This document shows positions 8,953-62,348 of a DNA stretch of 64,000 nucleotides, one piece after another. The notes under the pieces are model-generated. The model had not been told where the DNA came from. It saw only the letters and a list, made by a program, of their open reading frames with translations, and did no database searches. This DNA comes from Zea mays (taxonomy: Eukaryota > Streptophyta > Magnoliopsida > Poales > Poaceae), in contig NC_050098.1 in the NCBI RefSeq assembly GCF_902167145.1, positions 32,730,501 through 32,794,500 of the forward strand. The letters run 5' to 3'. The position numbers were made by a program, and so were the translations under genes. The first letter of the stretch is position 1; each line of letters begins with the position of its first letter.

Positions 8953-11335
8953 CCACTTGGGCTCCAGCTTGCCCCTGGACTCTGTTCGAGCTGTCCGGAC
9001 GAGTACGAGGTCTCCTTCGCTGAATTCCCTCGGGATGACTGTGTGGTCACGCCATGCTTTTGTCTGGGCCTGGTATTTGTTTAGAGCCTGTAGGGCGAAG
9101 ACGCGGTCTCCATCGATGAGGTCCTTCGAAGTGGGCTCGTCCACGTCGGGGACAGCTGACGGGACTGTCCGTGGGGACCCATGTTTTATTTCTTGCGGGG
9201 TCATAGCCTCCGATCCATATAGAAGGCGGAAAGGGGTGAACCCAGTCGCCCTGCACTCAGTCGTGTTTAATGCCCAGACTGCTTCAGGTAACAACTCGAC
9301 CCACTTGCCCTTTTTATCGTCGAGCAGCATCTTCTTGACAGCTGTGAAATTTTTTCCATTTGCGCGTTCCACAACTCCGTTGGACTGCGGGTGGTATACT
9401 GAGGCGAAGGCATGCTTGGTGCCAATGGAGAAGCAGAAATCCTTGAAGTCTTGGCTGTCAAATTGCTTGCCATTGTCAACTGTGAGTTCGGACGGTACTC
9501 CGAAGCGGCAAACAATGTTTTGCCAGAAGAATTTCTGGGCAGTCTTCGATGTTATTGTGGATACAGCCCTCGCCTCAATCCATTTGGTAAAGTATTCGAC
9601 AGCGACGAAGGTGAACTTGAAGTTCCCCTGGGCTGTGGGTAGGGGCCCAACGATGTCGAGGCCCCAGCGCTGAAGAGGCCATGTGTGGGCGATTAGCTTC
9701 GTGAACTGCGAAGGGCTTCCTGATCGTGGAGAAAATTTTCTGGCAGGCTTCGCAGGACCTTGTGACCCGATTTGCAGCGCAGATCATAGCGGACCAGTAG
9801 AAACCTTGCCGGATTACCTTTGCGGCTAGTGCCCTGGGCCCTGCGTGAGAGCCGCAAGTTCCGCTGTGGACTTCGCGCAAAATTTGGACGCCTTCGGTCT
9901 CGGTGACACATTTAAGCATGGGTTGACTGACCCCCTTCTTGTAAATCTATCCTTCAATTAGTGCGAGTTCCGGCTTCGATGTTTGAGGCGCTTGGCCTCA
10001 TTGATCTCGGTTGGATGATAATACCCCTGCAGGAACAGGGTTATTGGTGCCCGCCAGTCTTCGGTCATGATAAGGTTGACTATGCGGTGACCCTCGCTGT
10101 CATTGGTTATTTGGAGTCCTGGGCTGCGGACGGCTGGTGTGCCAATGACATGGTAGAATACATCGGAGGGCAGGGCCTCGCCTCGGGCGGCTGCTTTGGC
10201 CAACGCGTCAGCCTCCTCATTCTTGGCCCGGTCCACATGCTGCAAGGTGAAACCTTTGAATTGCCTCTCGAGACTACGGATAGCCGCGAGGTACTGCATA
10301 AGTGCGGGGTCCTTCGCTGCGTAGTCTTTCTCGACTTGGCCGGCGACTACCTTGGAGTCTGTTCTGATAATGCAGGTAGTGACACCAAGGGCCCTTAGTT
10401 TGCGGAGGCCGAGGATGACAGCTTCGTATTCTGCTATGTTGTTAGTGCATCTGTCAGATTCCAGAGCAAAGCTGAGGCGTGCCGCGTATCTGTGCTTGAC
10501 CCCGGTGGGTGAGGTAATGACTGCAGCAGCGCCTGCCCCCGCGTGGCACCATGCGCCGTCGCAATGGATTGTCCAAACCTTCTCTGCGGACGGGTCCGGC
10601 TGTGTTATTGGCCCAGTCCAGTCGATGATGAAGTCTGCCAGAACTTGTGACTTGATGGCTGTTCTGGGCTCGAATGTGATGTGGTAGCCGGAGAGTTCGA
10701 CCGCCATTTGGCAATCCGGACCGATGCCTCCGGGTTTCTGAACAATTCGCCGAGTCCCCTATCTGAGGTGACCCGGACCTTGAATGCTTCAAAATAGTGG
10801 CGCAATTTGCGCGAAGCCATAACAACTGCATAGGCAATCTTTTCCAGTTCCGTCATATTACATTTTGATGGTGCGAGCACTTCGGAGACGTAATAAACTG
10901 GACATTGCCTGATCATGCCCTCTACTGTCTGCTCTTGAAGTAGTGCCGCGCTGACCGCATGTGGCGAAGCCGCAACATAGAGCAACAGGGGTAGCGAAGA
11001 GTCGGGGCTTGTAAGAACCGCCAATTCCGACAGGTACTGTTTCAATGAGGCGAAGGACGCCGCCTTCTCTGGTCCCCAAGCGAAATCTTTTGCGCCACGG
11101 AGAGTTTTGAGGAAGGGGAGACTTCGCTCTGCGGATTTGGAGATGAATCTGTTGGGGGCGGCCAATCTGCCTGTCAGGTGTTGGATGTCTCTGGCTGACT
11201 GCGGGGGCGTCATGTTGATGATGGCCTAAATTTTGGTTGGGTTGGCCTCGATTCCATGGTGTGACACCAGGTAGCCCAATATTTTCCCCTGGCGAACGCC
11301 GAAGACGCACTTTTCGGGGTTTAGGCGAAGTCGTG
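8953..11335 (-). pseudogene. pol: Gypsy A pol: RT end, RNase H, archaeal-type RNase H, integrase
   Basis: Minus-strand Tat-lineage gypsy pol, truncated at its 5' side. From 11335 downward: RT thumb/connection (FLKTLRGAKDFAWGPEK), the normal gypsy RNase H (LLLYVAASPHAVSAALLQE, about 10750-11000), then a second archaeal-type RNase H (IHCDGAWCHAGAGAAAV ... NNIAEYEAVILGL, about 10230-10600), then integrase with its HHCC region (about 9740-9910) and C-terminal part (GFTPFRLLYGSEA). The double RNase H is the signature of the Tat clade. The reading changes frame at least three times, so it is dead. The RT catalytic motif is missing because the sequence is cut at 11335 by Gypsy B. Confidence 0.88.
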
Positions 11336-12205
11336 TGTGACACCCCAGTGTCACCTAGGGTTTCTCTCAAATGCCAAACCAAGAATCATTATTTTATGTG
11401 AGCCTAAGTAAGCATGAGCATCAAAATAACTTAAGTAATAAAGAATTCACCAAGTACATGCTTAAAAAGTATCATGATCAAACAATTGAGACTTTTAAAA
11501 GATAAGAATGTGCAACCCTAATTAAGAACCCTAAGTGAGCCCTATGAGCTAAATTCAAGAAAATAAGCACAAGGGGATGAAAAGTTTAAAATTATGAATT
11601 GGGCCAATTATAAAAATTGAAGTATATTTAATGGGCAACAAGAAATGTTGAGAAAACTTACCCAAAATAACTCAAATAAAACCCCAAATCAAGCTTCTCA
11701 TGTGGGGACTTAATGGGATTTCTGAATTTCAGAATTCTGAAATTCAGACCTTGAGCCAAAGATCAGGGATGTTCACCTTGATCCCTAACTCGAATCCTAA
11801 TGGCCCCATTGACAAAATTGTGTCTAACTAACCCCTCTGTCGTGTGCTAGAAGATGGCATTGGGACGCGAGCCCTAGACACGACAAAACCTTGGATTTGC
11901 CTCGGGTTTGGGCAGGGAGACAGACCAGATTTCCTGGCTCCATATCTCTGCAACCAGTAGGCAAAATCCTATGACCCCCACACAAGAATGGTAGTTTGTA
12001 GGGAGGAGAAGAGGTTTTGTGCACTGACCAAGGCGAGAGCAGGCTCGGATGAGCGACCACACGTGGCAGAACTTGGGCAGAACGCACGGGCACACGTGTT
12101 CGACCCTGGTCGGCACGCCAGAGCTCGCCCAACCCGCGCGCGCTCACCCCGGCGTCCGGTCAAGTCCGCCGCGCGCCCACACCCTCGGTCGTGCCCACCC
12201 GCGCC

Positions 12206-12211
12206 TATAAA
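12206..12211 (+). promoter_or_regulatory. TATA box of Gypsy B 5' LTR
   Basis: TATAAA in a GC-rich setting (GCGCCTATAAAGCC), expected to place transcription start near 12235. The same box is at 23085-23090 in the 3' LTR. Downstream leader splice motifs: donor GTGAGT at 12496, acceptor AG at 12587-12588, donor GTAAGC at 12737. Confidence 0.75.
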
Positions 12212-14524
12212 GCCTCCCCGGGCGCACCTCACTTCGCCCCGCACTCACCCTCACCGGCCAGCCACCTTTCCTTAGCTCCGGCGAGCTCAATTCCGCCCGC
12301 CATTGCCGCCAGAGCTCCGGCCACCGTGGCCAGCCCACTCCAGCCACCCTCAAGTCGAGCCAGTGCTTCGGCTAGCTCCGCCAGTAGCCCGTGAAGCTTG
12401 CCAAGCCCTCGGACCCGGCCGGACTTCACCGGAGGCCCGAGATCGACCTCACCGGACTTCGGTCTTCCGCCGCCGCGCGTGGACCGAGCTATCCAGTGAG
12501 TCCCCGCCCAATTCCTTGCGCTCATGTCTTCTCTGGCATCCCGTGGACCTCCCTTACCTATTTGATTGAACTATCTCGCCGTGACTAGGCCGGTCCCCTC
12601 GCCACCGACGAGCATCCCCGCCTGCACGCGTGGACCGACCGACTCCGGCCATCTCCGACGGCGTCCCGCACACCGTTGTGATCCCCGCGACCTCCCCTTC
12701 GTCCTCGACCACTTCACCGGAGCAATCTCGCCGCCGGTAAGCCCCTCCGCCCTTTCTTCCGCCGCGGTTACTGTTTGAGGTAGAAGAAGGACCTCGGGTT
12801 AGGATTTGTAGAACCCGAGGGGTTTTCTGTAACGTCAGTGACTCATGTGAATAGTAGCTTAAGGACTGATCCGCGAAGAAAACTTAAAAACCCGCCAGGG
12901 ACCCCAGTGCAAAGTGGATTTCCATTTAAACCAATTCTGTTATTCTTTTTTAAATGACCAGAGAACTTAGAAAATCCATAACTTGATGAAATCTTAATAA
13001 AAAGTTGTCAAACCAATTTTGCTAGCTCCTGAATATTATGAACTATCATTTAAAAATGATAAACCCTATGCTTTCTGTTCTAAATTTTAGAGTTTAAAAT
13101 TAAAAACAGAAACCCACCAAACCTTGTTTAATTAAGGAAAATTAGTTTTTCTTCTGTGCTGAACTTAAGAAAATTTGTAGATGTTTAAACCTCATTTAGC
13201 CACTGTTTAAAAATAATGGGAACCCCAGCATTAGAAATTATGATGTAGTTATTCATTTAAAGCTATTTTGCCCAAAACTTGGAGAAAATCAGAAGGACAT
13301 TAGAAATTAATGAACAGTGATTAAGATTATTTTTCCCAATTTACTTATGTAACAGAGAACCTAGGAAAAATACAGAGCCTATTAATTTGGACCAGTTTTG
13401 AATTAAAATGATTTATTTAGCCTTATATAAACTGAAAATCAATTATTAGAAAGGCAAAACTATAACCAAAATGCTTAATAAAAATCCAGTGGACTTACAA
13501 CCACCAGAACCCCACTACAAAAATATAGAGCACCTCAGCCCAACTTTTTAAGTAAGGAAAATGAATACAAAGTGATAATAAGGCATTTCCCAACTAAATC
13601 ATGAACAACCCCAAATAATGTGATAATGGGCAACCAAAAATTAGCTAAGTCCATAATGAGATAAACTACCAGAGAAAAATGCAAACCCCTGAAAAAGAAG
13701 CAAACTCATACCTATTGCTAATAATTTAAAAAAAGGCCACTTGATTCAAATAATGCATACCACCCCTTCCCTTAAGCAAAAAGATGCCAAACTTCAGAAT
13801 GATTGCTCTTGCACAAAATAATAACCAAGAAAAATAAGAACTCTGTTGTTTGATGTTTTTCAAATATAGTGGTAGTAGAAAGCACCCATTTGGCTAAGAA
13901 CTTGAGAAAACCATAGAAAATTAATTAAAAGGTATTAATGACTAGAAATTTGTATCAAGTCATGTTATAACACCTAAAAGCCAGCAAAAATGAGTTTTGG
14001 AAAATTACCCACTGTTAAATAATAGTTGTAGTTCAAAGTACCCCTTCTGCCCTAAAATTTGGTATTTTTGTCCAGAGAAAACTACTCACTTTCGGATCCC
14101 CAAATTTTGAGACAGGGAAACATACACCAGTAGCAAGCCACTGTAAGTTTTGCAGAATTTTTAGAATTTTATAAAAGCAACTTGTAGTTCAAACCTACTC
14201 CAAAACCTTTAAGAGAATAAAAGAAAAGGGAAGAAGAAATAAACCTCACCCCAATAAGTCTAACTTGAGAACTTATCAATTCTCCCTAAGACTTAAAAGG
14301 AATTCAGTGGAACCCCAAAAATTTAATCTACTACTTACCTTAGCTAAGTTTAACCCAATTTACCAAAGTATACCCCTAAAGGGTCTTACATAAGTAAAGT
14401 TAACTTGTTTAACTCAAGTAGATCATACACCTCCAAAGTTGTAATTTCTAAGAGCACATATCATATCATGCATATATCTTACGCATTGCATTCATTAGAT
14501 TGTAATCTTGCCGACGGAGAGTAC

Positions 14525-15711
14525 ATGCTCATCCCCGAGCAAGGATCTGTCCAAGAGGAGGACCAGGAGCAGGCTTCAGAGGCTGCTATCGAGGATCTCC
14601 CCGCAGCCCCAGCAATTGAAGGCAAGCCCCGGTTTTATGCATAACCTGTTAATTATGCTATTTTACTACACTTAATGCTTGTAGGATTGCAATGTGCACT
14701 TAAGTGTAGGAGTTGCTTGAAACCTCTAGTTGCATGAACTTAGGATTCCTTTTTGAGATGAGTACTAGTATGCTAGGTCGAGTAGCTGCTTGCTAATCAG
14801 GATCTCGGTAGAAGTCGAGTGATTTTTCTAGCACTCGCGCGAGGTCAGGAATTGATTGTATTCATCTTGATAACGGAATTTATGTTGGTCTATGGATTTG
14901 GATCCAGGGAGGATGCCTTGTCCATGAGACGAGAAAAAATGAATTAAGGATTAATGTGTGGATACCTGAGTCAAGCTTTTGAACGTACTAAGCACATGCC
15001 GAAAAAAATGGTAACCTGTAAACCTAGTACCTGAGTGAAGCCGGGCGCGGACTTTATCCCTCATGCGACCTGAGACTGGGTCTCCCATGCTAGCTATGGT
15101 GGGTACAAGTGCGGTCACTGCACGACGGCAGCCGGGGTCAGTGGAGCATTGTATGCCAAGGTGGTGAGGCCTGGACGCGAACGGGGAATCGATGGGGACG
15201 GTTGTCATGTGTGGGGTCGGAGTACCCTGACATGCCGTGTGTTTAGGTTTACCTTGCAAGGTTAAAACTCGATTCGAATCGTCTGCTTCTCGCAGCTAAT
15301 GAGACTGCTTGATTCCTTGTACTGCATCGAGTAAGAAGTGAAATGTGGTTACATGAGATAACTTGTTGATTGAACTAATTGATTGTTACCATGTATGCTT
15401 AGAAGGAGCAAATCTAGCTAAGTTAAGGATGATAGAATTTGAAAGGCTAAAAATTGATTTTAGAAACAGCTAGTGCTTTTGGCCAACCAAACCCCTCAGC
15501 CAAACAGCTGCATAGTCTAGAGGTAGAGGAGTAGACTCCTCACACCGGTTAAGTCTAGCTGAGTATTAGTATACTCAGCCTTGCTTGTGGCACAATTTTT
15601 GCAGGTACCATTCAGGAAATGGTTGATGCTGTGACTTGGCCTACCACCCTGCCACCGGGTTGGACGGTCGAGTGGGATGTTGCTCCGGCAGGAGAGGAAC
15701 ACGAGGAATAG
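14525..15711 (+). CDS. Predicted spliced small acidic protein encoded inside the Gypsy B LTR
   Basis: I do not recognise this protein. The model is two coding exons: 14525-14621 (ATG plus 31 codons plus one base) and 15605-15711, joined over a GC-AG intron (donor AAG|GCAAGC at 14622, acceptor TTTTTGCAG at 15596-15604). The junction keeps the frame (phase 1) and runs to TAG at 15709-15711, giving 67 residues. It starts MLIPEQGSVQEED and ends APAGEEHEE; it is acidic, with a Trp/Pro-rich middle. An acceptor ATTCATTAG precedes the exon at 14498. The leader exons (about 12236-12495 and 12589-12736) contain no ATG, so this would be the first ATG of the spliced RNA. What is seen: sites, frame and stop. 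What is inferred: that it is transcribed, spliced and translated. Alternative: captured or chance sequence. Confidence 0.5.
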
Positions 15712-16024
15712 TGGGCTAGGCCTTGCTCAATTCCTCGATACCGACGACATCGATTATCCGCTGCACCTTATTTTATGAACTTTATTTGCTACTCAAAAAC
15801 TCCGATTTATGTAATAATTCCGCACTTAATTTGAGGTTTTCTGTTTTATTGTATTTCTTCTGTGACTCACCTTCGAGTGAGCTTGTGGAATTTGATCCTG
15901 GTTAAGTGGCTCTATCAGACTAGATCTGAAGAACTGACGGGTTATTCCGATTTAAGTGTGTTACGGCCCCTGAGGCGTGACTTAGGCACTTAAGCTGGAA
16001 TAATTCGGGTGATTCTGCCATAGC

Positions 16025-16037
16025 TGGTATCGGAGCA
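16025..16037 (+). promoter_or_regulatory. Gypsy B primer-binding site (tRNA-iMet)
   Basis: TGGTATCGGAGCA four bases after the 5' LTR, a slightly diverged initiator tRNA-Met complement. The leader from here to 16400 holds no gene. It ends in a pyrimidine-rich tract and CCTTCCGCAG directly against the ORF0 ATG. Confidence 0.88.
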
Positions 16038-16400
16038 AATTCCACCACAGAGAAGGACAATAAACCATGAATACCAATTTCAAAATTCTAAAACTTGCCT
16101 AGAAACTACTACAGATCGTCAGGACTAGACCGCTAGACCTAGGACGAAAGGCCTTAGGCATAGAGGGGAATATAGGTGGCTACCTAATTAGGCCCTATGG
16201 GCCAGTACTTATATTTTTAAGGATGCCCTAAAAAGGCACCCTACTTTCTTTTGAGAGGCAACGTTTCTTCCAGCATGCATGCATTATAAAATGTAAAGAG
16301 GGATTAAAATTTTGAGCTAACCCCCTTCCTTTAAAACCATCCGGGCTCTCTTTTTCTTTTTCCTTCCACCATAATCTTTACCTTTGATTCCCTTCCGCAG

Positions 16401-17276
16401 ATGAATCCACCCACCCCCGCCAGTGGAGGAGACTCTTGTTTCAGTTCTGACTTCCTTTCTCATGATGGCTTTCCTTCCATCTTGTGGGAAGTGCTTAACT
16501 CCGCCGGTTACCCTACGCCCCCTTTGTACACGGTGCAGTTGTATGAGGAGCATCGGGTACCTCGTTGTTGGGTCTGGCTGACTTTGGAGGCTCATCCCCT
16601 TCAGCCGGGTTGGCGTTCTCTTGACTCTGAGACGATTGGACTCAGGACGGACGACACCGTTGAGGCAGCAGCCATGAAGACTCTGACGACTTTCTGTGGC
16701 TACCATCCCCTGGAGATGGTGATGCACCCCTTGGGACTCTTCCCTGCTGAGAAGAAGGATGATCCCATGTGGTGTAACCGAGTGAGCCATGTGAAGGATG
16801 TGTGGGCAATGTATCCTGACTTGGTTGGGAGGGTCACTGTTCAGTGCATGAGTGCGCTGTACCGCCTTCAGGCCCTTCAGAGTGATGCTATGACACTTCT
16901 TGCTAACACCGCTCAGACTGCCAAGCTCACTCTCGACAGTCGGGAAGATTTTGTGGTTGACCTATCCACAGAGTTGGTGGAGAAGGATCTGCAGGTGGAG
17001 AGGCTGAGCCAGCGCATCACCACCCTGGAGCAGCAAGTGGAGATCCGAGACAACACTATTGATGTCTTGGAGAACCAGCTTCACGATGTGCAGAGGGAAC
17101 TCGAGGAAGCAAATGACCACTTGGACATGCACCACCTGGAGATGGAGGCCAATGAAGCAGGAAGCGAGGGAGAAGAGGCTCCCGAGGAGCTAGGACCAGC
17201 CCCTGGTGCCAATGGGACTACCTCCGCGATGCCTCCTTCACCCATATCCAGTGTCGCTTCCACCGCTCAGGGTTAA
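16401..17276 (+). CDS. Gypsy B ORF0: 291-residue coiled-coil protein upstream of gag
   Basis: Intact ORF in the element's own sense, between the PBS and gag. ATG at 16401 follows CCTTCCGCAG directly. The first half (to about residue 150) is a globular region rich in Trp, Pro and Cys (PRCWVWLTLEAHP; TTFCGYHPLEMVMHPLGLFP). Residues of about 170-245 form a predicted coiled coil (ERLSQRITTLEQQVEIRDN). The C-terminus is acidic, then Ala/Pro/Ser-rich. It has no zinc knuckle, protease or RT motif. An extra ORF at this position is known from RIRE3/RIRE8-type rice elements; its function is not known to me. It is the only clearly intact long ORF of this element, while the adjoining gag-pol is broken. 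A 257-bp spacer separates it from gag. Confidence 0.8.
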   Translation: MNPPTPASGGDSCFSSDFLSHDGFPSILWEVLNSAGYPTPPLYTVQLYEEHRVPRCWVWLTLEAHPLQPGWRSLDSETIGLRTDDTVEAAAMKTLTTFCGYHPLEMVMHPLGLFPAEKKDDPMWCNRVSHVKDVWAMYPDLVGRVTVQCMSALYRLQALQSDAMTLLANTAQTAKLTLDSREDFVVDLSTELVEKDLQVERLSQRITTLEQQVEIRDNTIDVLENQLHDVQRELEEANDHLDMHHLEMEANEAGSEGEEAPEELGPAPGANGTTSAMPPSPISSVASTAQG

Positions 17277-17533
17277 GTAGTTGCTTTGACATTTTTAGGC
17301 GGATAGAAACCTATGCGAGCTTAGTAGTATCACATTTTGGACTAGGCTTATGGGTACCTTCCCCTGATTGATGTAACCCTGTGAACCTTTGAAATCTGTG
17401 GGATATTTGTCACCATGTTATCTTCATTTCGAACCTAATATTATGATTATGGCATTTTCCTTCCATATGAGATGATATCTTGTCGTTCGAAACTGTGAGT
17501 TGGGATAACAATGGCGGCAATCTCTGTTTTCAG

Positions 17534-20500
17534 ATGGCAGCTAGGCAGCGTCGCGGGCATAACGAGCAGGTTCCCCCGCCACCTCCTCCGGCTCCCACAG
17601 TGCAGGAGCTGATGGCCCAGCAGAATGAGATTCTGCGACAGCTCTTGCAGCGCCAGCCCCACCAACAGCAGCATGGTGGAGGCCAGCATCAGCGACCTCC
17701 GGCTATGGCAACTTACCAGGAGTTTCTGAGCACGCAGCCGCCTTTGTTCACCAAGGCAGAGGATCCATTGGACGCCGACGTGTGGCTTCGCGTCATCGAG
17801 TCCAAGTTTCCCCTCCTCACGGGAGACTGCCCTGATGAGGCCAAGGCTCGCTTCGCCGCACAGCAGCTTCGCGGCCCTGCTCGGACTTGGTGGGACCACT
17901 TCCGTGCTATGCTCCCCGCTGATCGTGAAGTATCTTGGGAGGAATTCAAGACTGCCTTCAGAGGACACCACATCCCAGCTGGCATTCTTGATCGAAAGTT
18001 GAATGAATTTCTGGCCCTTAATCAAGGAACCCGCACGGTACTGCAGTATGCGCAAGCCTTCAACGACTTATGCCAGTATGCAGGGTATCATGCTGATTCT
18101 GATGAAAAGAAGAGGGATCGCTTCCGCAGGGGTCTCAATACCAAGCTGCGGGAACGACTCAACACTGTCCGGGCTGATAGCTTCAATGAGTTGGTCAACA
18201 TGGCCATCTCCCAGGAGGATTGCATTGTTGCTCACCGGGCAGAGAAGAAGAGAAAGGCACCAATGGCAGCACCATCCGCTCAGGCTCAGAGGTTCCGGAT
18301 TGTTTCTCACAACCAGAGCAGGGGTTTTCAGCAGCAGGCAGGCAGATGGGTGATCAGGCCACCTCAGCAGCAGCAGCAGCCGGCACCCAACCGCTACCCA
18401 GCTCCCGCCCCAAGGAACAATCAGCCTCAGCAGCAGCAGCAGTTCCGCCAGGGCAATGGGAACAAGTGTTTCACTTGTGGCAATGTGGGCCACTATGCCA
18501 AGAATTGTCCCAGGAACCAGCAGAAGCAGATGCCAGCACCAAATCAAGACAAGGGAAGAAAGCAGAAGGTGCAAGTCAGGCAAGGGAAGCTCAACTTCAC
18601 TACTCTGGAGGAAGTACCAGAAGGAGCTCCTATCATGACCGGTACCTTTTCAGTTTATAATCAACCTGCTTTAATTATGTTTGATTCTGGTGCATCTCAT
18701 AGTTTCATTAGCCAAAAGTTCAGTGCTAAATGCAAACTGCCATTCTCTCACTCAAAGGGGTCATTCATGATAGTCACACCTGGGGGTAAAATTGCAACTA
18801 ATCAATTAAACCAAAGTGTGCCTATTCAACTGGGAAGCCACATTATCAAAACCACTCTTCTTGTGTTGGGATTGGAAAATGTGGACATTATTCTAGGGGC
18901 AAATTGGATGACCTTGCACCAAGTTGTGCTCGATGTAGCAGTCATACCGTGGAGGTTAATTCTCCGTTCTGCGGAAATTTCACTTTAATTCTGCCTAGTC
19001 AGGGTTCTTCTCAGTCATGTGCTTTCTCTATGATGGAGTTACCCCTGAAGAAGATCCCAGTGGTCTGTGAGTATGCAAGCGTCTTTCCTGATGAATTGCC
19101 AGGAATGCCACCGGACCGGGATATTGAATTCGCCATCGAGTTGCAACCGGGAACGGCCCCAATTTCTAAGAGGCCCTACCGAATGCCACCCGCTGAGTTG
19201 GCAGAGTTGAAGAAGCAGTTGCAAGAATTGCTGGATAAGGGTTTTATTCGCCCAAGCACTTCACCTTGGGATGTCCAGCACTGTTTGTGAAGAAGAAGGA
19301 TGAAAGCTTGAGGCTGTGCATAGATTACCGCCCTCTTAATGTGGTAACTATCAAGAACAAGTATCCTTTGCCTCGTATTGATGTTCTCTTTGACCAGTTG
19401 GTCGGGGCCAAGGTGTTTTCCAAGATAGACCTTCGCTCTGGCTACCATCAAATCAAGATACGAGCAAGTGATATTCCGAAGACGGCATTCTCAACCAGAT
19501 ATGGGCTATATGAATTTTTGGTGATGTCATTCGGGCTGACAAATGCGCCAGCATATTTCATGTATCTGATGAATTCTGTTTTTATGCCGGAATTGGACAA
19601 GTTCGTGGTGGTTTTCATCGATGATATTTTGGTGTACTCAAAGAACGAAGAAGAACATGCCGGGCATTTGCATGTAGTGCTTCAACGTCTGCGAGAGCAC
19701 CACCTTTATGCCAAGTTATCCAAGTGTGATTTTTGGCTAAAGGAAATCAAGTTCTTGGGTCACACTATCTCTCAGGCTGGAATAGCTGTTGATCCTGATA
19801 AAGTGCAAGAAGTGATGAACTGGAGGCCACCAACAACTGTTCGCCAGATTCGGAGTTTTCTGGGATTAGCTGGTTATTACCGAAGATTTATTCCGGACTT
19901 CTCTCGAATTGCGAAGCCTATCACTGAGTTGCTGAAGAAAGAAGTCAAGTTTGTCTGGAGTCAGAAGTGCGAAGATGCCTTCCATGCATTAAGGCAGCAT
20001 CTGACCACAGCACCAGTATTGGCGCAACCCGACAGCAGCAAGCCTTTTGATGTATATTGTGATGCCTCGGGCACCGGGCTAGGTTGTGTCTTGATGCAAG
20101 ACAACCGAGTCATTGCTTATGCCTCAAGAGCACTCAGGCCTCATGAGCAAAATTATCCCACTCATGACCTCGAGTTAGCAGCAGTGGTTCATGCATTGAA
20201 GATGTGGAGGCACTATCTAATGGGAACCCACTGCAACATCTTCACTGATCATAAGAGCCTTAAGTACATTTTTACTCAGGCTAATCTCAACATGAGGCAG
20301 AGAAGATGGCTAGAGCTGATCAAGGATTATGACCTGGAGGTACATTATCACCCGGGAAAAGCTAATGTGGTAGCAGATGCCTTGAGTCGGAAGTTGCAAT
20401 GCAATTGTATTCTGATGGATTCTCGCATTAACACCTTGTGTGATGAGTTGAGCAAGATGCAAATTGAAGTGATTCCTTCTGGTTCTTTGTCTCACATTTC

Positions 20501-21962
20501 TGTTGAGCCAGCTTTGCAAGACCAGATTATCATGGCCCAGCTCAGTGACAAGGGAGTGCAGATTATCAAGAAGAATCTCCATCAGAAGGTTGAGAAGTAT
20601 AATTGTTTCCGCCAGGATGAAAAAGGTGTGCTATGGTTCAAAAGCAGATTGGTGATTCCTAAAGACCAGGACCTCAAGAGGAAAATTTTGGATGAGGCTC
20701 ATCTCTCCAAATTCTCTATGCATCCGGGAAGCACCAAGATGTACCATGATCTAAAGCCTTTGTACTGGTGGACCAGAATGAAGAGGGAGATAGCCCAGTA
20801 TGTATCAGAATGTGACACCTGTCAGAGGATAAAGGCAAGCCACTTGAAGTCAGCTGGAGCTTTGCAACCACTGTCCGTACCTTCGTGGAAGTGGGATGAC
20901 ATCAACATGGATTTCATTGTGGGTCTGCCCAACACCTCTCGTCATCATGATTCAATTTGGGTTATTGTGGACCGATTGACGAAAGTGGCACATTTTCTTC
21001 CTGTGCACACCACTGATAAGGCTCGGAAGTATGCAGAATTGTATATTGACCGAATCGTGTGTTTGCACGGATTACCTCGGACCATTGTTTCTGACCGAGG
21101 AGCCCAATTTGTTGCCAGATTTTGGGAACAATTGCAAGAGTCTTTGGGAACCAAGCTAATCAGGAGTTCAGCTTAACACCCACAGACTGATGGTCAGACG
21201 AAAAGGGTAAACCAAATCCTGGAGGATATGCTGAGAGCTTGTGCGATCGATTGTGGCAAGAACTGGGATAAGCACCTCTCCTTGGCAGAGTTTGCTTATA
21301 ACAATAGTTATCAATCCAGCCTAAAGATGACACCTTTTGAAGCTCTCTATGGAAGAAGGTGCAGGACACCACTCAATTGGTCTCAACCTGGTGAAAGAGA
21401 AGTTTTTGGACCTGATTTAGTGACGGAAGCCGAAAGGAAGGTTAAGCTAATCAGGAAGAATCTAGAAGCTGCTCAAGCCAGGCAGAAGAGCTATCATGAT
21501 AAAAGAAGGAAACCTCTCCAGTTCGAGGTGGGAAGTTTTGTATACCTCAAGGTATCACCCACCAAGGGAGTGCAGAGGTTTGGGATCAAAGGCAAGCTAG
21601 CCCCTCGTTACATTGGACCTTATGAGATCATAGAAGCATGTGGACCCGTGGCATACAAGCTGAAGTTACCTTCCAAGATGTCTGCCATTCACAGTGTTTT
21701 CCATGTATCTCAGCTGAAAAAGTGTGTTCGATTGCCGACCGAGATCTTAGCAGAGCCAGAATTGGAGATAGAGCCAGATCTATCGTACCAAGAGTACCCC
21801 TCCAAGATTCTGGATTTCAAAGAAAGATCAACTCGGGCTAAATCGGTCAAGATGTTCAAGGTCCAGTGGAGTAATCACTCAGAGGAGGAAGCTACTTGGG
21901 AAACCGAGGAATTCCTGAGATCCAACTTCCCCGATTGCCTACCTAAGGAAGCTGGTACGTAA
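17534..21962 (+). pseudogene. gag-pol: Gypsy B gag-pol polyprotein with chromodomain-like tail
   Basis: Start taken at ATG 17534 (MAARQRRGHNEQ), which directly follows CTCTGTTTTCAG. Order: Gln-rich N-terminus, retrotransposon gag core, CCHC knuckle at about residue 312 (CFTCGNVGHYAKNC), protease (MFDSGASHSFIS, about residue 383), RT with FIDD (about 19612-19626), RNase H ([21 protein letters not shown]), integrase zinc finger and catalytic core ([15 protein letters not shown]), and a C-terminal chromodomain-like segment (KVQWSNHSEEEATWE). Breaks: frameshifts near 18945 and 19277 and a stop at 21174-21176 within the integrase. The RT and RNase H active-site residues are preserved. Confidence 0.92.
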
Positions 21963-22212
21963 TCACCCCAACCCCTCCTCCTGCCCTTCGAATCTAATTT
22001 TCAAAAATATGATCTTAATTCAGAATGAAGAAGCTATGAAGTAAAACCTAAAAGGACTTCCTTCTGAAGTTGCAAAGAGAATGACATTCGAAGAGCAGTT
22101 TTACCCTGATAATAACAATAATCACCCATTTCCTATAAGTCTCACCCTTCGCTTCACCCCGGGAGGACTCTGGCCCGAATCTCGGGCTGAGATTCCTTTA
22201 AGGGGGGAAGGC
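21963..22212 (+). other. Gypsy B 3' noncoding region and PPT
   Basis: After the integrase stop. No gene seen. It ends in the polypurine tract TTTAAGGGGGGAAGGC (22197-22212), directly before the 3' LTR TGTGACAC. Confidence 0.85.
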
Positions 22213-25200
22213 TGTGACACCCCAGTGTCACCTAGGGTTTCTCTCAAATGCCAAACCAAGAATCATTATTTTATGTGAGCCTAAGTAAGCATGAGCATCA
22301 AAATAACTTAAGTAATAAAGAATTCACCAAGTACATGCTTAAAAAGTATCATGATCAAACAATTGATACTTTTAAAAGATAAGAATGTGCAACCCTAATT
22401 AAGAACCCTAAGTGAGCCCTATGAGCTAAATTCAAGAAAATAAGAACAAGGGGATGAAAAGTTTAAAATTATGAATTGGGCCAATTATAAAAATTGAAGT
22501 ATATTTAATGGGCAACAAGAAATGTTGAGAAAACTTACCCAAAATAACTCAAATAAAACCCCAAATCAAGCTTCTCATGTGGGGACTTAATGGGATTTCT
22601 GAATTTCAGAATTCTGAAATTCAGACCTTGAGCCAAAGATCAGGGATGTTCACCTTGATCCCTAACTCGAATCCTAATGGCCCCATTGACAAAATTGTGT
22701 CTAACTAACCCCTCTGTTGTGTGCCAGAAGATGGCATTGGGACGCGAGCCCTAGACACGACAAAACCTTGGATTTGCCTCGGGTTTGGGCAGGGAGACAG
22801 ACCAGATTTCCTGGCTCCATATCTCTGCAACCAGTAGGCAAAATCCTATGACCCCCACACAAGAATGGTAGCTTGTAGGGAGGAGAAGAGGTTTTGTGCA
22901 CTGACCAAGGCGAGAGCAGGCTCGGATGAGTGACCACACGCGCCATAACTTGGGCAGAACGCACGGGCACACGTGTTCGACCCTGGTCGGCACGCCAGAG
23001 CTCGCCCAACCCGCGCGCGCGCTCACTCCGGCGTCCGGTCAAGTCCGTCGCGCGCCCACGCCCTCGGCCGTGCCCGCCCACGCCTATAAAGCCTCCCCGG
23101 GCGCACCTCACTTCGCCCCGCACTCACCCACACCGGCCAGCCACCTTTCCTTAGCTCCGGCGAGCTCAATTCCGCCCGCCATTGCCGCCAGAGCTCCAGC
23201 CACCGTGGCCAGCCCACTCCAGCCACCCTCAAGTCGAGCCAGTGCTTCGGCTAGCTCCGCCAGTAGCCCGTGAAGCTTGCCAAGCCCTCGGACCCGGCCA
23301 GACTTCACCGGAGGCCCGAGATCGACCTCACCGGACTTCGGTCTTCCGCCGCCGCGCGTGGACCGAGCTATCCAGTGAGTCCCCGCCCAATTCCTTGCGC
23401 TCATGTCTTCTCTGGCATCCCGTGGACCTCCCTGACCTATTTGATTGAACTATCTCGCCGTGACCAGGCCAGTCCCCTCGCCGCCGACGAGCATTACCCG
23501 CCTGCGCGCGTGGACCGACCGACTCCGGCCATCTCCGACGGCGTCCCGCACACCGTTGTGATCCCCGCGACCTCCCCTTCGTCCTCGACCACTTCACCGG
23601 AGCAATCTCGCCGCCGGTAAGCCCCTCCGCCCTTTCTTCCGCCGCGGTTACTGTTTGAGGTAGAAGAAGGACCTCGGGTTAGGATTTGTAGAACCCGAGG
23701 GGTTTTCTGTAACGTCAGTGACTCATGTGAATAGTAGCTTAAGGACTGATCCGCGAAGAAAACTTAAAAACCCGCCAGGGACCCCAGTGCAAAGTGGATT
23801 TCCATTTAAACCAATTCTGTTATTCTTTTTTAAATGACCAGAGAACTTAGAAAATCCATAACTTGATGAAATCTTAATAAAAAGTTGTCAAACCAATTTT
23901 GCTAGCTCCTGAATATTATGAACTATCATTTAAAAATGATAAACCCTATGCTTTCTGTTCTAAATTTTAGAGTTTAAAATTAAAAACAGAAACCCACCAA
24001 ACCTTGTTTAATTAAGGAAAATTAGTTTTTCTTCTGTGCTGAACTTAAGAAAATTTGTAGATGTTTAAACCTCATTTAGCCACTGTTTAAAAATAATGGG
24101 AACCCCAGCATTAGAAATTATGATGTAGTTATTCATTTAAAGCTATTTTGCCCAAAACTTGGAGAAAATCAGAAGGACATTAGAAATTAATGAACAGTGA
24201 TTAAGATTATTTTTCCCAATTTACTTATGTAACAGAGAACCTAGGAAAAATACAGAGCCTATTAATTTGGACCAGTTTTGAATTAAAATGATTTATTTAG
24301 CCTTATATAAACTGAAAATCAATTATTAGAAAGGCAAAACTATAACCAAAATGCTTAATAAAAATCCAGTGGACTTACAACCACCAGAACCCCACTACAA
24401 AAATATAGAGCACCTCAGCCCAACTTTTTAAGTAAGGAAAATGAATACAAAGTGATAATAAGGCATTTCCCAACTAAATCATGAACAACCCCAAATAATG
24501 TGATAATGGGCAACCAAAAATTAGCTAAGTCCATAATGAGATAAACTACCAGAGAAAAATGCAAACCCCTGAAAAAAAGCAAACTCATACCTATTGCTAA
24601 TAATTTAAAAGAAAGGCCACTTGATTCAAATAATGCATACCACCCCTTCCCTTAAGCAAAAAGATGCCAAACTTCAGAATGATTGCTCTTGCACAAAATA
24701 ATAACCATGAAAAATAAGAACTCTGTTGTTTGATGTTTTTCAAATATAGTGGTAGTAGAAAGCACCCATTTGGCTAAGAACTTGAGAAAACCATAGAAAA
24801 TTAATTAAAAGGTATTAATGACTAGAAATTTGTATCAAGTCATGTTATAACACCTAAAAGCCAGCAAAAATGAGTTTTGGAAAATTACCCACTGTTAAAT
24901 AATAGTTGTAGTTCAAAGTACCCCTTCTGCCCTAAAATTTGGTATTTTTGTCCAGAGAAAACTACTCACTTTCTGATCCCCAAATTTTGAGACAGGGAAA
25001 CATACACCAGTAGCAAGCCACTGTAATTTTTGCAGAATTTTTAGAACTTTATAAAAGCAACTTGTAGTTCAAACCTACTCCAAAACCTTTAAGAGAATAA
25101 AAGAAAAGGGAAGAAGAAATAAACCTCACCCCAATAAGTCTAACTTGAGAACTTATCAATTCTCCCTAAGACTTAAAAGGAATTCAGTGGAACCCCAAAA

Positions 25201-26900
25201 ATTTAATCTACTACTTACCTTAGCTAAGTTTAACCCAATTTACCAAAGTATACCCCTAAAGGGTCTTACATAAGTAAAGTTAACTTGTTTAACTCAAGTA
25301 GATCATACACCTCCAAAGTTGTAATTTCTAAGAGCACATATCATATCATGCATATATCTTACGCATTGCATTCATTAGATTGTAATCTTGCCGACGGAGA
25401 GTACATGCTCATCCCCGAGCAAGGATCTGTCCAAGAGGAGGACTAGGAGCAGGCTTCAGAGGCTGCTATCGAGGATCTCCCCGCAGCCCCAGCAATTGAA
25501 GGCAAGCCCCGGTTTTATGCATAACCTGTTAATTATGCTATTTTACTACACTTAATGCTTGTAGGATTGCAATGTGCACTTAAGTGTAGGAGTTGCTTGA
25601 AACCTCTAGTTGCATGAACTTAGGATTCCTTTTTGAGATGAGTACTAGTATGCTAGGTCGAGTAGCTGCTTGCTAATCAGGATCTCGATAGAAGTCGAGT
25701 GATTTTTCTAGCACTCGCGCGAGGTCAGGAATTGATTGTATTCATCTTGATAACGGAATTTATGTTGGTCTATGGATTTGGATCCAGGGAGGATGCCTTG
25801 TCCATGAGACGGGAAAAAATGAATTAAGGATTAATGTGTGGATACCTGAGTCAAGCTTTTGAACGTACTAAGCACATGCCGGGAAAAATGGTAACCGGTA
25901 AACCTAGTACCTGAGTGAAGCCGGGCGCGGACTTTATCCCTCATGCGACCTGAGACTGGGTCTCCCATGCTAGCTATGGTGGGTACAAGTGCGGTCACTG
26001 CACGGCGGCAGCCGGGGTTAGTGGAGCATTGTATGCCAAGGCGGTGAGGCCTGGACGTGAACGGGGAATCGATGGGGACGGTTGTCATGTGTGGGGTCGG
26101 AGTACCCTGACATGCCGTGTGTTTAGGTTTACCTTGCAAGGTTAAAACTCGATTCAAATCGTCTGCTTCTCGCAGCTAATGAGACTGCTTGATTCCTTGT
26201 ACTGCATCGAGTAAGAAGTGAAATGTGGTTACATGAGATAACTTGTTGATTGAACTAATTGATTGTTACCATGTATGCTTAGAAGGAGCAAATCTAGCTA
26301 AGTTAAGGATGATAGAATTTGAAAGGCTAAAAATTGATTTTAGAAACAGCTAGTGCTTTTGGCCAACCAAACCCCTCAGCCAAACAACTGCATAGTCTAG
26401 AGGTAGAGGAGTAGACTCCTCACACCGGTTAAGTCTAGCTGAGTATTAGTATACTAAGCCTTGCTTGTGGCACAATTTTTGCAGGTACCATTCAGGAAAT
26501 GGTTGATGGTGTGACTTGGCCTACCACCCTGCCACCGGGTTGGACGGTCGAGTGGGATGTTGCTCCGGCAGGAGAGGAGCACGAGGAATAGTGGGCTAGG
26601 CCTTGCTCAATTCCTCGATACCGACGACATCGATTATCCGCTGCACCTTATTTTGTGAACTTTATTTGCTACTCAAAAACTCCGATTTATGTAATAATTC
26701 CGCACTTAATTTGAGGTTTCCTGTTTTATTGTATTTCTTCTGTGACTCACCTTCGAGTGAGCTTGTGGAATTTGATCCTGGTTAAGTGGCTCTATCAGAC
26801 TAGATCTGAAGAACTGACGGGTTATTCCGATTTAAGTGTGTTACGGCCCCTGAGGCGTGACTTAGGCACTTAAGCTGGAATAATTCGGGTGGTTCTGCCA
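22213..26900 (+). repeat. Gypsy B 3' LTR
   Basis: 4688 bp, closely matching 11336-16020 along its whole length with scattered substitutions and a few 1-3 base indels (for example in the A-rich run near 24575-24610). TATA box at 23085-23090. It contains the second copy of the LTR mini-gene. Confidence 0.93.
25405..26591 (+). pseudogene. Second copy of the LTR mini-gene, with a nonsense codon
   Basis: Same exon layout as at 14525-15711: ATG at 25405, GC-type donor AAG|GCAAGC at 25502, acceptor TTTTTGCAG ending at 26484, stop TAG at 26589-26591. A CAG codon of the left copy is TAG here (25444-25446), ending the frame after 13 codons. One Ala codon is Gly in the last exon. All predicted splice sites are unchanged. 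Confidence 0.5.
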
Positions 26901-26928
26901 CACCGTGCGTCCCACGGTGGGCGCCAAA
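26901..26928 (-). promoter_or_regulatory. Gypsy A primer-binding site region
   Basis: Minus strand reads TTTGGCGCCCACCGTGGG directly after the LTR end, a PBS of the TGGCGCC class used by Tat-lineage gypsy elements. I do not assign the tRNA. Only 28 bases of Gypsy A leader survive before the Gypsy B boundary. Confidence 0.7.
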
Positions 26929-47710: not shown

Positions 47711-49259
47711 TGTCGGCGTTTCGAGACAGGGGGGTCCCAAAGCCGACGAGTGAGTGTGCTGCGTGCCCCAGCCCAGATGGGTCGAGCGCGTGGGCGAGCG
47801 CGAAGGGGGGAGAGGCGAGGTGGCCGGAGTCGAGCGTGAGAGAGGTGGAAGTCCCGCGGCCTTCGTGTTTGTCCCGCGCCTAGGTCAGGTGCGCTTGCAG
47901 TAGGGGGGTTACAAGCGTCCACGCGGGTGAGGGAAGCGAGCGGCCCCAAGAGAGCGCCTGTCCCGTCCTCGGTCCCGCGTGGCCAACCTTTTCTAAGAAG
48001 GCCCTGGTCCTCCCTTTTATAGTCGTAAGGAGAGGATCCAGGTGTACAATGGGGGGTGTAGCAGAGTGCTACGTGTCTAGCGGAGAGAGAGCTAGCGCCC
48101 TAGGTACATGCCAATGTGGCAGCCGGAGAGGTCTTGGCACCTTGCTGGCGTGATGTCGTGGCTGTCGGAGGTGCGACGGAGCCTGGCGGAGGGACAGCTG
48201 TTGGAGCGGTCGAGTCCTTGCTGACGTCGCCCTGCTTCCGTAAGAGAGCTGGGGGCCGCCATCGTCACAGAGCTTGTGGAGCGCCATCATTGCCCATTCG
48301 GCGGAGCTGGCCGGATGGGACGCCGGTCTTGTTCTCCGTGACCCGAGTCGATTCGGGGTAGGACGATGATGATGCTTCCTGTTGACGTGGCGGGTCTGTG
48401 CCCTAGGCGGGGTGACGTGGGGGCTCCTCCGAAGCCGAGGTTGAGTCTGTCTTCTGTTGCTGAGGCCGAGTCCGAGCCATGGGGTCGGGCGAGGCGGAGG
48501 CCGTTTGGCCGAGGCCAGGGCGGAGTCCGAGTCCTGGGGTCGGGCGAGGCGGAGTTTCGTCGTCTTCCGGGTCTTAGCCCGAGTCCGAGCCCTAGGGTCG
48601 GGCGGAGCGAAGTTCGCCGTCTTCCGGGTCTTAGCCCGAGTCCGAGCCCTGGGGTCGGGCGGAGCGGAGTTCGCCGTCTTCCGGGTCTTAGCCGGAGTCC
48701 GAGCCCTGGGGTCGGACGGAGCGGAGTTCGCCGTCTTCCGGGCCTTAGCCCGAGTCCGAGCCCTGGGGTCGGGCGGAGCGGAGTTCGCCGTCTTCCGGGT
48801 CTTAGCCCGAGTCCGAGCCCTGGGGTCGGGCGGAGCGGAGTTCGCCGTCTTCCGGGTCTTAGCCCGAGTCCGAGCCCTGGGGTCGGGCGGAGCGGAGTTC
48901 GCCGTGGCGCCTTTGGCAAGGCCTAACTGTCTGTCTGACTCACCCTTTGCGTTAAATGCTCCTGCAACTCGGTCAGTCGGTGTGGCGATTTAGTCAGGGT
49001 CGCTTCTGAGCGAAGCCAAGGCCTCGGGCGAGCCGGTGATGTGTCCGCCGTAAAAAGGGGGGCCTCGGGCGAGACGGAAGTCTCTCGAGGTTGGCTGCCC
49101 TTGGCCGAGGCTAGGCTCGGGTGAAGCGCGATCGAGTCACTCATGTGGACTGATCCCTGACTTAATCGTACCCATCAGGCCTTTGCAGCTTTATGCTGAT
49201 GGGGGTTACCAGCTGAGAATTAGGCGTCTTGAGGGTACCCCTGATTATGGTCCCCGACA
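47711..49259 (-). repeat. Huck 3' LTR
   Basis: 1549 bp. TATA box CTATAAAAGGG on the minus strand at about 48011-48022, leaving about 300 bp of R/U5. It contains six 57-bp tandem units (48561-48902). ORFs on both strands in this LTR follow from that repeat and are not genes. Confidence 0.92.
48561..48902. repeat. 57-bp tandem repeat, six units, in Huck 3' LTR
   Basis: Units start at 48561, 48618, 48675, 48732, 48789 and 48846 with the motif CGTCTTCCGGGTCTTAGCCC. The period of exactly 57 (3 x 19) keeps every frame in phase and, with no stops in the unit, generates long spurious ORFs. It lies upstream of the minus-strand TATA box, in U3. Confidence 0.95.
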
Positions 49260-62310: not shown

Positions 62311-62348
62311 ATCTCGAGGACGAGATTATTTTTAAGGGGGGTAGGATT
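62311..62348 (+). promoter_or_regulatory. Tekay polypurine tract
   Basis: TTTTTAAGGGGGGTAGGATT (about 62329-62348) directly before the 3' LTR start TGTAATACTCC; preceded by GAGGACGAGATTA, typical of the Del-type 3' end. Confidence 0.85.

What the first reader, a model, noticed from the sequence alone, without database searches (positions are those of the whole stretch)
12206..15870. The Gypsy B LTR reads as a complete small spliced gene
Seen directly: TATAAA at 12206; GC-rich leader with donor GTGAGT (12496), acceptor AG (12588) and donor GTAAGC (12737); no ATG in either leader exon; a 1.76-kb AT-rich stretch of intron character; acceptor ATTCATTAG (to 14498); the first ATG of the spliced model at 14525; a GC-type donor AAG|GCAAGC (14622); acceptor TTTTTGCAG (to 15604); a phase-1 join that stays open for 34 more codons to TAG (15709); a poly(A)-type signal after it. 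The result is a 67-residue acidic protein. Frame maintenance across a GC-AG intron, plus the first-ATG coincidence, is unlikely to be accidental. I know of no description of an LTR carrying such a gene. It would make each solo LTR a stand-alone gene.
Basis: partly seen in the sequence, partly recalled or inferred. Interest (0 to 1): 0.88.

Follow-up and report, generated by a model that had tools for sequence, protein, structure and literature searches.

The report
Spliced coding exons inside retrotransposon LTR
The long terminal repeats of this plant retrotransposon hold two short exons that evolve like real protein-coding sequence, and the evidence suggests they are the spliced tail of the element's main protein rather than a stand-alone small gene.

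Summary
The splice-like anatomy is real. Exon A (14499-14621) and exon B (15605-15711) behave as coding: between 30 copies of this subfamily (s1) and 33 of a remote one (s3) in the same genome, pS/pN is 0.67/0.20 and 0.49/0.14 in the predicted frame and phase; leader exons show little or none of this. The exons differ by one 3-nt indel, the stop keeps its place as TAG or TGA, and the GC donor is kept. One database ORF spans the A-B junction; no intronless A-B copy turned up in this genome.

The stand-alone reading fails at its start: ATG 14525 is GTG in 33 of 33 other s1 copies and Met in 7 of 130 database ORFs; s3 copies lack it. The 3' LTR copy has a stop at codon 14.

Best model: A+B are pol's 3'-terminal exons, used from the 3' LTR. 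The best-scoring internal GT donor overlaps the pol stop (21955), in the phase exon A needs, and is kept in 15 of 15 other copies. That splice was not observed.

The parts
11336..16020 (+). 5' LTR (4685 bp, TG...CA)
   Evidence: 98.9% identical to 22213-26900; boundaries read
22213..26900 (+). 3' LTR
12206..12211 (+). TATA box, kept in 6 of 6 s3 copies aligned
12236..12736 (+).
12737..14498 (+). AT-rich intron 2 (33% GC), weakly conserved against s3
14499..14621 (+). exon A (5' LTR copy), coding; its first codon is G|AT, one base coming from the exon before
   Evidence: pS 0.667 / pN 0.20, one 3-nt indel against s3; no indel in the s1 copies that hold it
14525..14527 (+).
   Evidence: GTG in 33 of 33 other s1 genomic copies with the site; ATC 31, ATT 1, CTC 1 in s3; Met in 7 of 130 database ORFs
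14622..15604 (+). intron 3, GC-AG; GC kept in 32 of 33 s1 and 33 of 33 s3; the block itself is unusually conserved
15605..15711 (+). exon B (5' LTR copy) to stop TAG
   Evidence: pS 0.488 / pN 0.138, no indels; TGA at the same place in 35 of 35 s3
25379..25501 (+). exon A in the 3' LTR (the copy that could follow pol); has a nonsense change at 25444
26485..26591 (+). exon B in the 3' LTR with stop TAG
16401..17276 (+). ORF0, 291 aa; ATG directly follows AG
17534..18988 (+). gag-protease frame; ATG directly follows strong acceptor TTTTCAG, kept in s3 (2 of 2)
21228..21962 (+). integrase C-terminal part with SH3-like and chromodomain; pol ORF end
21955..21962 (+). GTACGTAA: donor overlapping the pol stop, phase 1; best of 292 scored GT sites in 16021-22212
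   Evidence: kept in 5 of 5 s1, 8 of 8 s3 and 2 of 2 s2 copies

Best explanation
A Tekay/Del-like Ty3-gypsy chromovirus with 4.7-kb LTRs carries two short protein-coding exons, A and B, inside each LTR. Shown: both exons are under purifying selection in one frame, with phases that join across a conserved GC-AG intron, and a conserved stop position. Inferred: in a full-length RNA they act from the 3' LTR as the last two exons of the gag-pol transcript. The donor overlapping the pol stop codon (G|GTACGTAA, 21955) is spliced to exon A (25379) and then to exon B (26485). This replaces the pol stop with an acidic tail of about 75 residues behind the integrase chromodomain. RNA without this splice gives pol without the tail, and the genomic RNA. 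The copies of A and B in the 5' LTR, and those in solo LTRs, are by-products of LTR duplication at reverse transcription. The leader up to donor 12737 is probably the spliced, AUG-poor 5' UTR of ORF0 and gag, whose ATGs lie directly behind acceptor-like AG.
For: Exon A pS 0.667/pN 0.20 (dS median 1.73, dN 0.23); exon B 0.488/0.138 (0.78, 0.154), 30 s1 x 33 s3 copies. The other two frames of these exons do not show it (3 s3 copies). A closer subfamily, s2, agrees: exon A 0.34/0.04 and 0.26/0.05, exon B 0.13/0.05 and 0.13/0.04 (2 copies against one s1 copy). Polymorphism: shared changes 12 nonsynonymous: 25 synonymous, singletons 46 (+3 nonsense): 21, Fisher p 0.0005. Third-position excess in random single pairs, both exons: median p 3e-5, worst of 200 draws 0.001. 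One in-frame 3-nt indel; TAG/TGA at the same place. P0132 is joined exactly at the A-B junction in the s3 type. Pol link: exon A needs one base of a codon from upstream, and no in-frame ATG was seen in leader exon 2. The best GT donor of the internal region is phase 1 at the pol end, in 15 of 15 other copies. The pol tail evolves alike, pS 0.75-0.92/pN 0.14-0.16, 7 of 8 s3 loci.
Against: No read, cDNA or protein showing the pol-to-exon-A junction was found; the genome pattern search for it did not complete. GTAYGTAA at the pol end could be kept simply as the C-terminus and stop. P0132 begins inside exon A and does not continue from pol, so that contig shows A-B joining without pol. All s1 x s3 pairs share one ancient divergence and are not independent; exon B alone is only marginal on the third-position test (median p 0.055). 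Some intron-3 blocks also have pS above pN (e.g. 0.229/0.067 at 14742), and leader exon 2 has a weak excess in one open frame in 2 of 3 copies (0.40/0.29, 0.39/0.27). Several copies are the two LTRs of one element, so some 'shared' changes may be post-insertion; the s3 and s2 copies were found by exon B similarity. One of the two s2 copies (L111) has a stop in exon A. In s3 the donor score is lower (5.5-6.5 against 8.2), and all scores use a recalled matrix. The P0132 fold is low confidence (pLDDT 70, pTM 0.23).
Confidence: 0.65

Rival explanations
1. One reading: a stand-alone small gene in every LTR, driven by the LTR TATA box, with two leader introns and a 67-residue product starting at the first ATG.
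For: TATA and donor 12737 kept in 6 of 6 s3 copies aligned; frame, phase and stop under selection; P0132 joined without pol upstream; Met at this codon in 7 of 130 database ORFs, and some s3 copies have ATG two codons further on (L029; 23 of 99 s3-type ORFs, a sample biased to ORFs with a start codon).
Against: ATG at 14525 in 0 of 33 other s1 and 0 of the 33 s3 genomic copies with a full codon there; no ATG in leader exon 2, and the frame leading into exon A holds stops in both subfamilies; intron-1 sites not kept in place; little coding signal in the leader.
Confidence: 0.12
2. A and B are coding but belong to another product: a non-AUG start near the leader/exon A junction, initiation at the Met of exon B (30-residue product), or an upstream exon other than pol such as ORF0.
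For: No AUG in frame in leader exon 2; the exon-B Met is kept in the s1, s2 and s3 translations read except L063 (Leu); P0132 not joined to pol; two odd exon-A joins, P0188 and P0194.
Against: A start in exon B cannot explain selection on exon A; the ORF0 end has only a weak donor (2.75).
Confidence: 0.18
3. No protein: A and B are non-coding leader exons, and the open frame is accidental.
For: Leader plus exon A has no AUG once the window's ATG is read as in most copies (0 against 2.9 expected, P 0.018; two of six s3 copies have one ATG in leader exon 1); ORF0 and gag ATGs lie directly behind AG; 4 of 300 shuffles match.
Against: Synonymous/non-synonymous asymmetry in the predicted frame of both exons, in-frame indel, stop kept as TAG or TGA, shared/singleton contrast.
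Confidence: 0.04
4. The block 14486-15700 looks conserved because subfamilies exchanged it by recombination or template switching.
For: Intron 3 differs by only about 16% while 150-base windows of U3, leader and intron 2 with at least 100 aligned sites differ by 27-60%.
Against: Exons within the block are more diverged at synonymous sites (pS 0.49-0.67) than the intron between them, which exchange of the whole block does not give.
Confidence: 0.1

Closest known systems
Retrosat2 family (rice; maize homolog ZMsat2), chromovirus clade Tekay/Del (PMC3485330: outline, first part of Results, section 12 and passages seen; PMC6317226: passages seen)
   Same: LTRs over 3 kb, a long R region (2 kb in Retrosat2; inferred here), an ORF0 before gag-pol, grass hosts; the paper reports RT-PCR expression of Retrosat2
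   Different: No coding exon in the LTR and no splicing found in what I saw of it: 'intron' 0 times, 'splic' once, in a reference title
Spliced plant retrotransposons: BARE1 and EVADE (short Gag mRNA), Ogre (intron between PROT and RT) (PMC3735527 abstract and passages; PMC12786077 and PMC6317226 passages)
   Same: Facultative splicing of element RNA
   Different: The introns described there lie in the internal region; the 2025 review says plant LTR elements generally lack introns apart from such exceptions
Cer1 of C. elegans (PMC12786077, passage)
   Same: An LTR element making a protein from a spliced mRNA
   Different: That protein is needed for export of unspliced RNA; nothing here shows such a role, and LTR location is not stated in the passage
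MMTV sag and HIV nef, reading frames in or overlapping the 3' LTR (recalled; only a listing on MMTV superantigen was seen)
   Same: Coding sequence in the 3' LTR of a reverse-transcribing element
   Different: No intron inside the LTR part in those (recalled); here two exons with a GC-AG intron inside the LTR

Membership tests
Tekay/Del chromovirus (Retrosat2 relatives) | gag, protease, RT, RNase H, integrase in Ty3-gypsy order | tested here: met
   Pfam matches in order
Tekay/Del chromovirus (Retrosat2 relatives) | chromodomain at the integrase C-terminus | tested here: met
   PF00385 E 2.9e-7 at 193-238 of 244 aa
Tekay/Del chromovirus (Retrosat2 relatives) | LTR over 3 kb and ORF0 upstream of gag | tested here: met
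   LTR 4685 bp, ORF0 16401-17276; homology to rice ORF0 not tested
Tekay/Del chromovirus (Retrosat2 relatives) | placement with Tekay in an RT or integrase tree | not tested
   no reference set was aligned
Protein-coding exons under purifying selection | pS above pN in one frame of the exons | tested here: met
   sporadic excess in some intron-3 blocks
Protein-coding exons under purifying selection | only in-frame indels, stop kept | tested here: met
Protein-coding exons under purifying selection | conserved start codon in the LTR | tested here: not met
   ATG 14525 a minority variant; none in leader exon 2
GC-AG intron | GC at the donor in relatives, AG acceptor | tested here: met
   GC in 32 of 33 s1 (one GT), 33 of 33 s3; AG in 31 of 32 s1 and 35 of 35 s3
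GC-AG intron | removed from RNA | tested here: inconclusive
   one joined ORF, P0132, whose source contig type is unknown; no true intronless copy found in the genome
Spliced pol tail from the 3' LTR | phase-matched conserved donor at the pol end | tested here: met
Spliced pol tail from the 3' LTR | junction read or peptide | not testable with these tools
   no transcriptome or peptide data; junction pattern search of the genome unanswered

The most novel reading that the evidence does not exclude
A Ty3-gypsy retrotransposon completes its main polyprotein with two exons that lie inside its own 3' LTR, through a donor overlapping the pol stop and a conserved weak GC-AG intron. The intron inside the LTR is itself held more strongly than the protein, perhaps as a signal kept only in unspliced genomic RNA. 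Splicing would thus separate a tailed integrase from a tail-less one and translated RNA from packaged RNA, much as retroviruses keep the packaging signal in an intron (recalled).
Probability: 0.45. Interest if true: 0.92.

Novelty: new variant of a known kind. Interest (0 to 1): 0.82.

Why it matters
LTRs are treated as non-coding regulatory DNA. If an abundant family (3,821 first-look candidates for its leader in this assembly, 40 of them scored) keeps selected coding exons in the LTR, then solo LTRs seed genomes with ready-made splice acceptors and coding exons; one maize UniRef entry appears to join another N-terminus at the exon B boundary (P0154). The model also gives a testable reason for very long LTRs, and makes integrase-tail and RNA-sorting questions in Tekay-like elements directly testable with existing long-read RNA data.

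Tried and rejected
Rejected: ATG 14525 as a family start; the longer frame from ATG 14468 (the stretch before 14498 is 40-52% diverged in the 33 s3 copies with exon A, and its frame varies); L110 as an intronless copy (an unspliced LTR whose intron ends GAAG); exon A/B as a known family (no Pfam match up to E 10; PDB best E 0.038 on 12 residues); Rfam (0 matches at gathering threshold, 11336-17600); an exceptional fold in 14922-15360 of intron 3 (z 0.95). No relatives were confirmed in IMG/VR, GTDB contigs or plasmids. The ORF0 end as donor is weak. Ten paper searches (two returned nothing) listed no title or abstract start naming coding exons in a plant LTR; only open-licence PMC papers are searched.

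Rows dropped: I fetched 36 of the 38 s1 places other than the window's own LTRs (two tandem neighbours on C1 left out). One search used 30 s1 (36 plus LTR2, minus LTR2, L042, L045, L047, L056, L072, L073: truncated, without the exons, unmatched, or, for LTR2, the window's own) and 33 of 35 s3 (minus L012, L092). Several copies are the two LTRs of one element. In one search, L002 and L004 were taken in the wrong orientation and are ignored; a wrong reading frame was used, repeated correctly; L108 was not placed. s1 copies were the closest by leader similarity; s3 and s2 copies were found by exon B similarity.
Full report
What is there. The window lies in a 2.18-Gb assembly at G000:C3:32730501-32794500. 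An LTR retrotransposon occupies 11336-26900, with LTRs of 4.7 kb that are 98.9% identical. Pfam gives gag, protease, RT, RNase H, integrase and a chromodomain; an ORF0 of 291 aa precedes gag. The architecture matches the Tekay/Del chromoviruses with long LTRs, of which rice Retrosat2 and maize ZMsat2 are described (PMC3485330, sections and passages); no tree was made.

Observation. Alone, the two-exon frame is moderately unlikely: 4 of 300 shuffles equal it (splice scores use a matrix I recalled). In this element's own 3' LTR the frame is cut at codon 14 by a C-to-T change. Within the element, exons have not changed more slowly than spacer since insertion (1 event in exon A and 2 in exon B among 50 counted), as expected for dead copies.

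Relatives as proteins. A search with the 67 residues found 329 database proteins (120 listed), one with the exon B part 68, one with P0132 170 (120 listed). Nearly all of those listed look like unspliced reads of genomic copies. One, P0132 (64 aa, one JGI contig of 1685 bases), joins the exon A and exon B of a diverged type exactly at the predicted junction and phase; it was the only 1 of 216 exon-A ends followed by exon B. A maize UniRef entry (P0154) has a different N-terminus up to the exon B boundary. Whether P0132's contig is from RNA is not stated. In the genome, the best 150 of 28,279 candidates held no full-length match to P0132, and a degenerate A-B junction pattern had one match in 2.18 Gb, which proved to be an unspliced LTR with a changed intron end. 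So the junction is best explained by splicing, though one contig is thin evidence.

Relatives as DNA. From the same genome I read 36 stretches of this subfamily (s1), chosen by the leader and not by the exons, and 35 of a remote subfamily (s3). In s1, 33 of 33 copies with the site have GTG where the window has ATG; the donor is GC in 32 of 33; neither exon has an indel other than truncations, while intron 3 has many of 1-2 bases. Besides the window's 3' LTR, single s1 copies show a stop in the exons (L058, L065), a lost exon B acceptor (L065) or a changed exon-B Met (L063), as decaying copies would. Among database ORFs, Met occurs at codon 14525 in 7 of 130. Against s3 (33 copies with both exons), exon A differs at 26-33% of bases with a single 3-base indel, exon B at 23-27% with none, and the stop is TGA in 35 of 35 at the place of TAG.

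Selection. Over 30 x 33 pairs, exon A has pS 0.667 and pN 0.20, exon B 0.488 and 0.138; third positions hold 59% and 50% of differences. The other two frames of the same exons do not show this, nor does leader exon 1 in the three copies scanned beyond small excesses (at most 0.43/0.32); leader exon 2 has a weak excess in one open frame in two of three. Intron-3 blocks read as codons show it only here and there, not in one frame. A sliding scan for stop-free 120-base windows flagged exon A in all three copies and one poorly aligned block at 14818-14970 in two of three; exon B is too short for that scan. Because all pairs share one divergence, I also drew single pairs: Fisher p for both exons had median 3e-5 and worst 0.001 of 200; exon A alone median 1e-4, exon B alone median 0.055. 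A second, younger comparison (s2, 2 copies against one s1 copy) gives the same direction, although one s2 copy has a stop in exon A. Within subfamilies, changes shared by copies are 12 nonsynonymous to 25 synonymous, singletons 46 to 21 plus 3 nonsense (Fisher p 0.0005): constraint while the element was spreading, little after insertion. Pairs of LTRs from one element are among the copies, which blurs 'shared'.

Where does the protein start? Leader exon 2 has no ATG in the window, two s1 and six s3 copies read in the right orientation, and its frame into exon A has stops in both subfamilies. Exon A takes one base of its first codon from upstream. The pol ORF ends G|GT ACG TAA: a donor overlapping the stop, phase 1, and the best of 292 scored GT sites in the internal region. 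It is present at the same offset and phase in 5 of 5 s1 and 8 of 8 s3 copies and at the same place in 2 of 2 s2 copies. Another chromovirus in the window ends pol without such a donor. The pol tail evolves like the LTR exons (pS 0.75-0.92, pN 0.14-0.16, 7 of 8 s3 loci). So I propose that A and B in the 3' LTR are the last exons of pol. Shown: coding constraint, phase, donor conservation. Inferred: the splice and the tailed product. P0132 does not continue from pol and so does not support this step.

Other signs of splicing. The gag ATG follows TTTTCAG directly (2 of 1086 ATGs in the window, itself included, have as good a site) and does so in 2 of 2 s3 copies; the ORF0 ATG also follows AG directly (8 of 1086 as good) and in the 3 s3 loci where ORF0 was matched, though with lower scores. 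Donor 12737 and the TATA box are kept in 6 of 6 s3 copies.

Unexplained. Intron 3 differs by only about 16% between subfamilies, with 17-22 gap events in each of the 33 s3 copies that hold it, against 27-60% for 150-base windows of U3, leader and intron 2 with at least 100 aligned sites. It is more conserved than the synonymous sites of the exons beside it. No Rfam match and no unusual folding energy for 14922-15360. A signal needed in unspliced RNA would fit; this is a guess.

Known or new. Splicing is described for BARE1, EVADE and Ogre, with introns in the internal region, and a 2025 review calls plant LTR elements generally intronless (passages of PMC3735527, PMC6317226, PMC12786077). My ten paper searches listed nothing that names coding exons in a plant LTR. 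I class it as a new variant of a known kind.

Noticed in passing
window 14622-15604 and fetched s3 copies: Intron 3 is a conserved block (about 84% identity between subfamilies whose U3, leader and intron 2 windows are 40-73% identical), more conserved than synonymous sites of the exons beside it.
   Followed up: partly
window 16401 and 17534; L090, L091, L093, L101, L102: The start codons of ORF0 and gag lie directly behind a splice-acceptor-like AG, in two remote subfamilies.
   Followed up: partly
window 11326-11335 and 26901-26910: No target-site duplication is visible around the element (TCGTG against CACCG), although the LTRs are 98.9% identical.
   Followed up: no
window 12054-12201: Differences between the two LTRs cluster just upstream of the TATA box.
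   Followed up: no
G000:C1:50442231-50447015: Three copies of the LTR leader stretch lie about 2.1 kb apart in a row, as if part of the LTR were tandemly repeated.
   Followed up: no
proteins P0188 and P0194 (listed, sequences): Exon A is joined upstream (P0188) or downstream (P0194) to other sequence at or next to its predicted ends, in 6 and 14 contigs; alternative splicing or genomic chimeras.
   Followed up: no
window 59616-62349: A second, 65-66% similar chromovirus ends pol with a plain stop and no donor; it served as a control.
   Followed up: yes
window 48449-48905 and 58667-59121: Repeat units of about 57 bases occur in another LTR pair.
   Followed up: no
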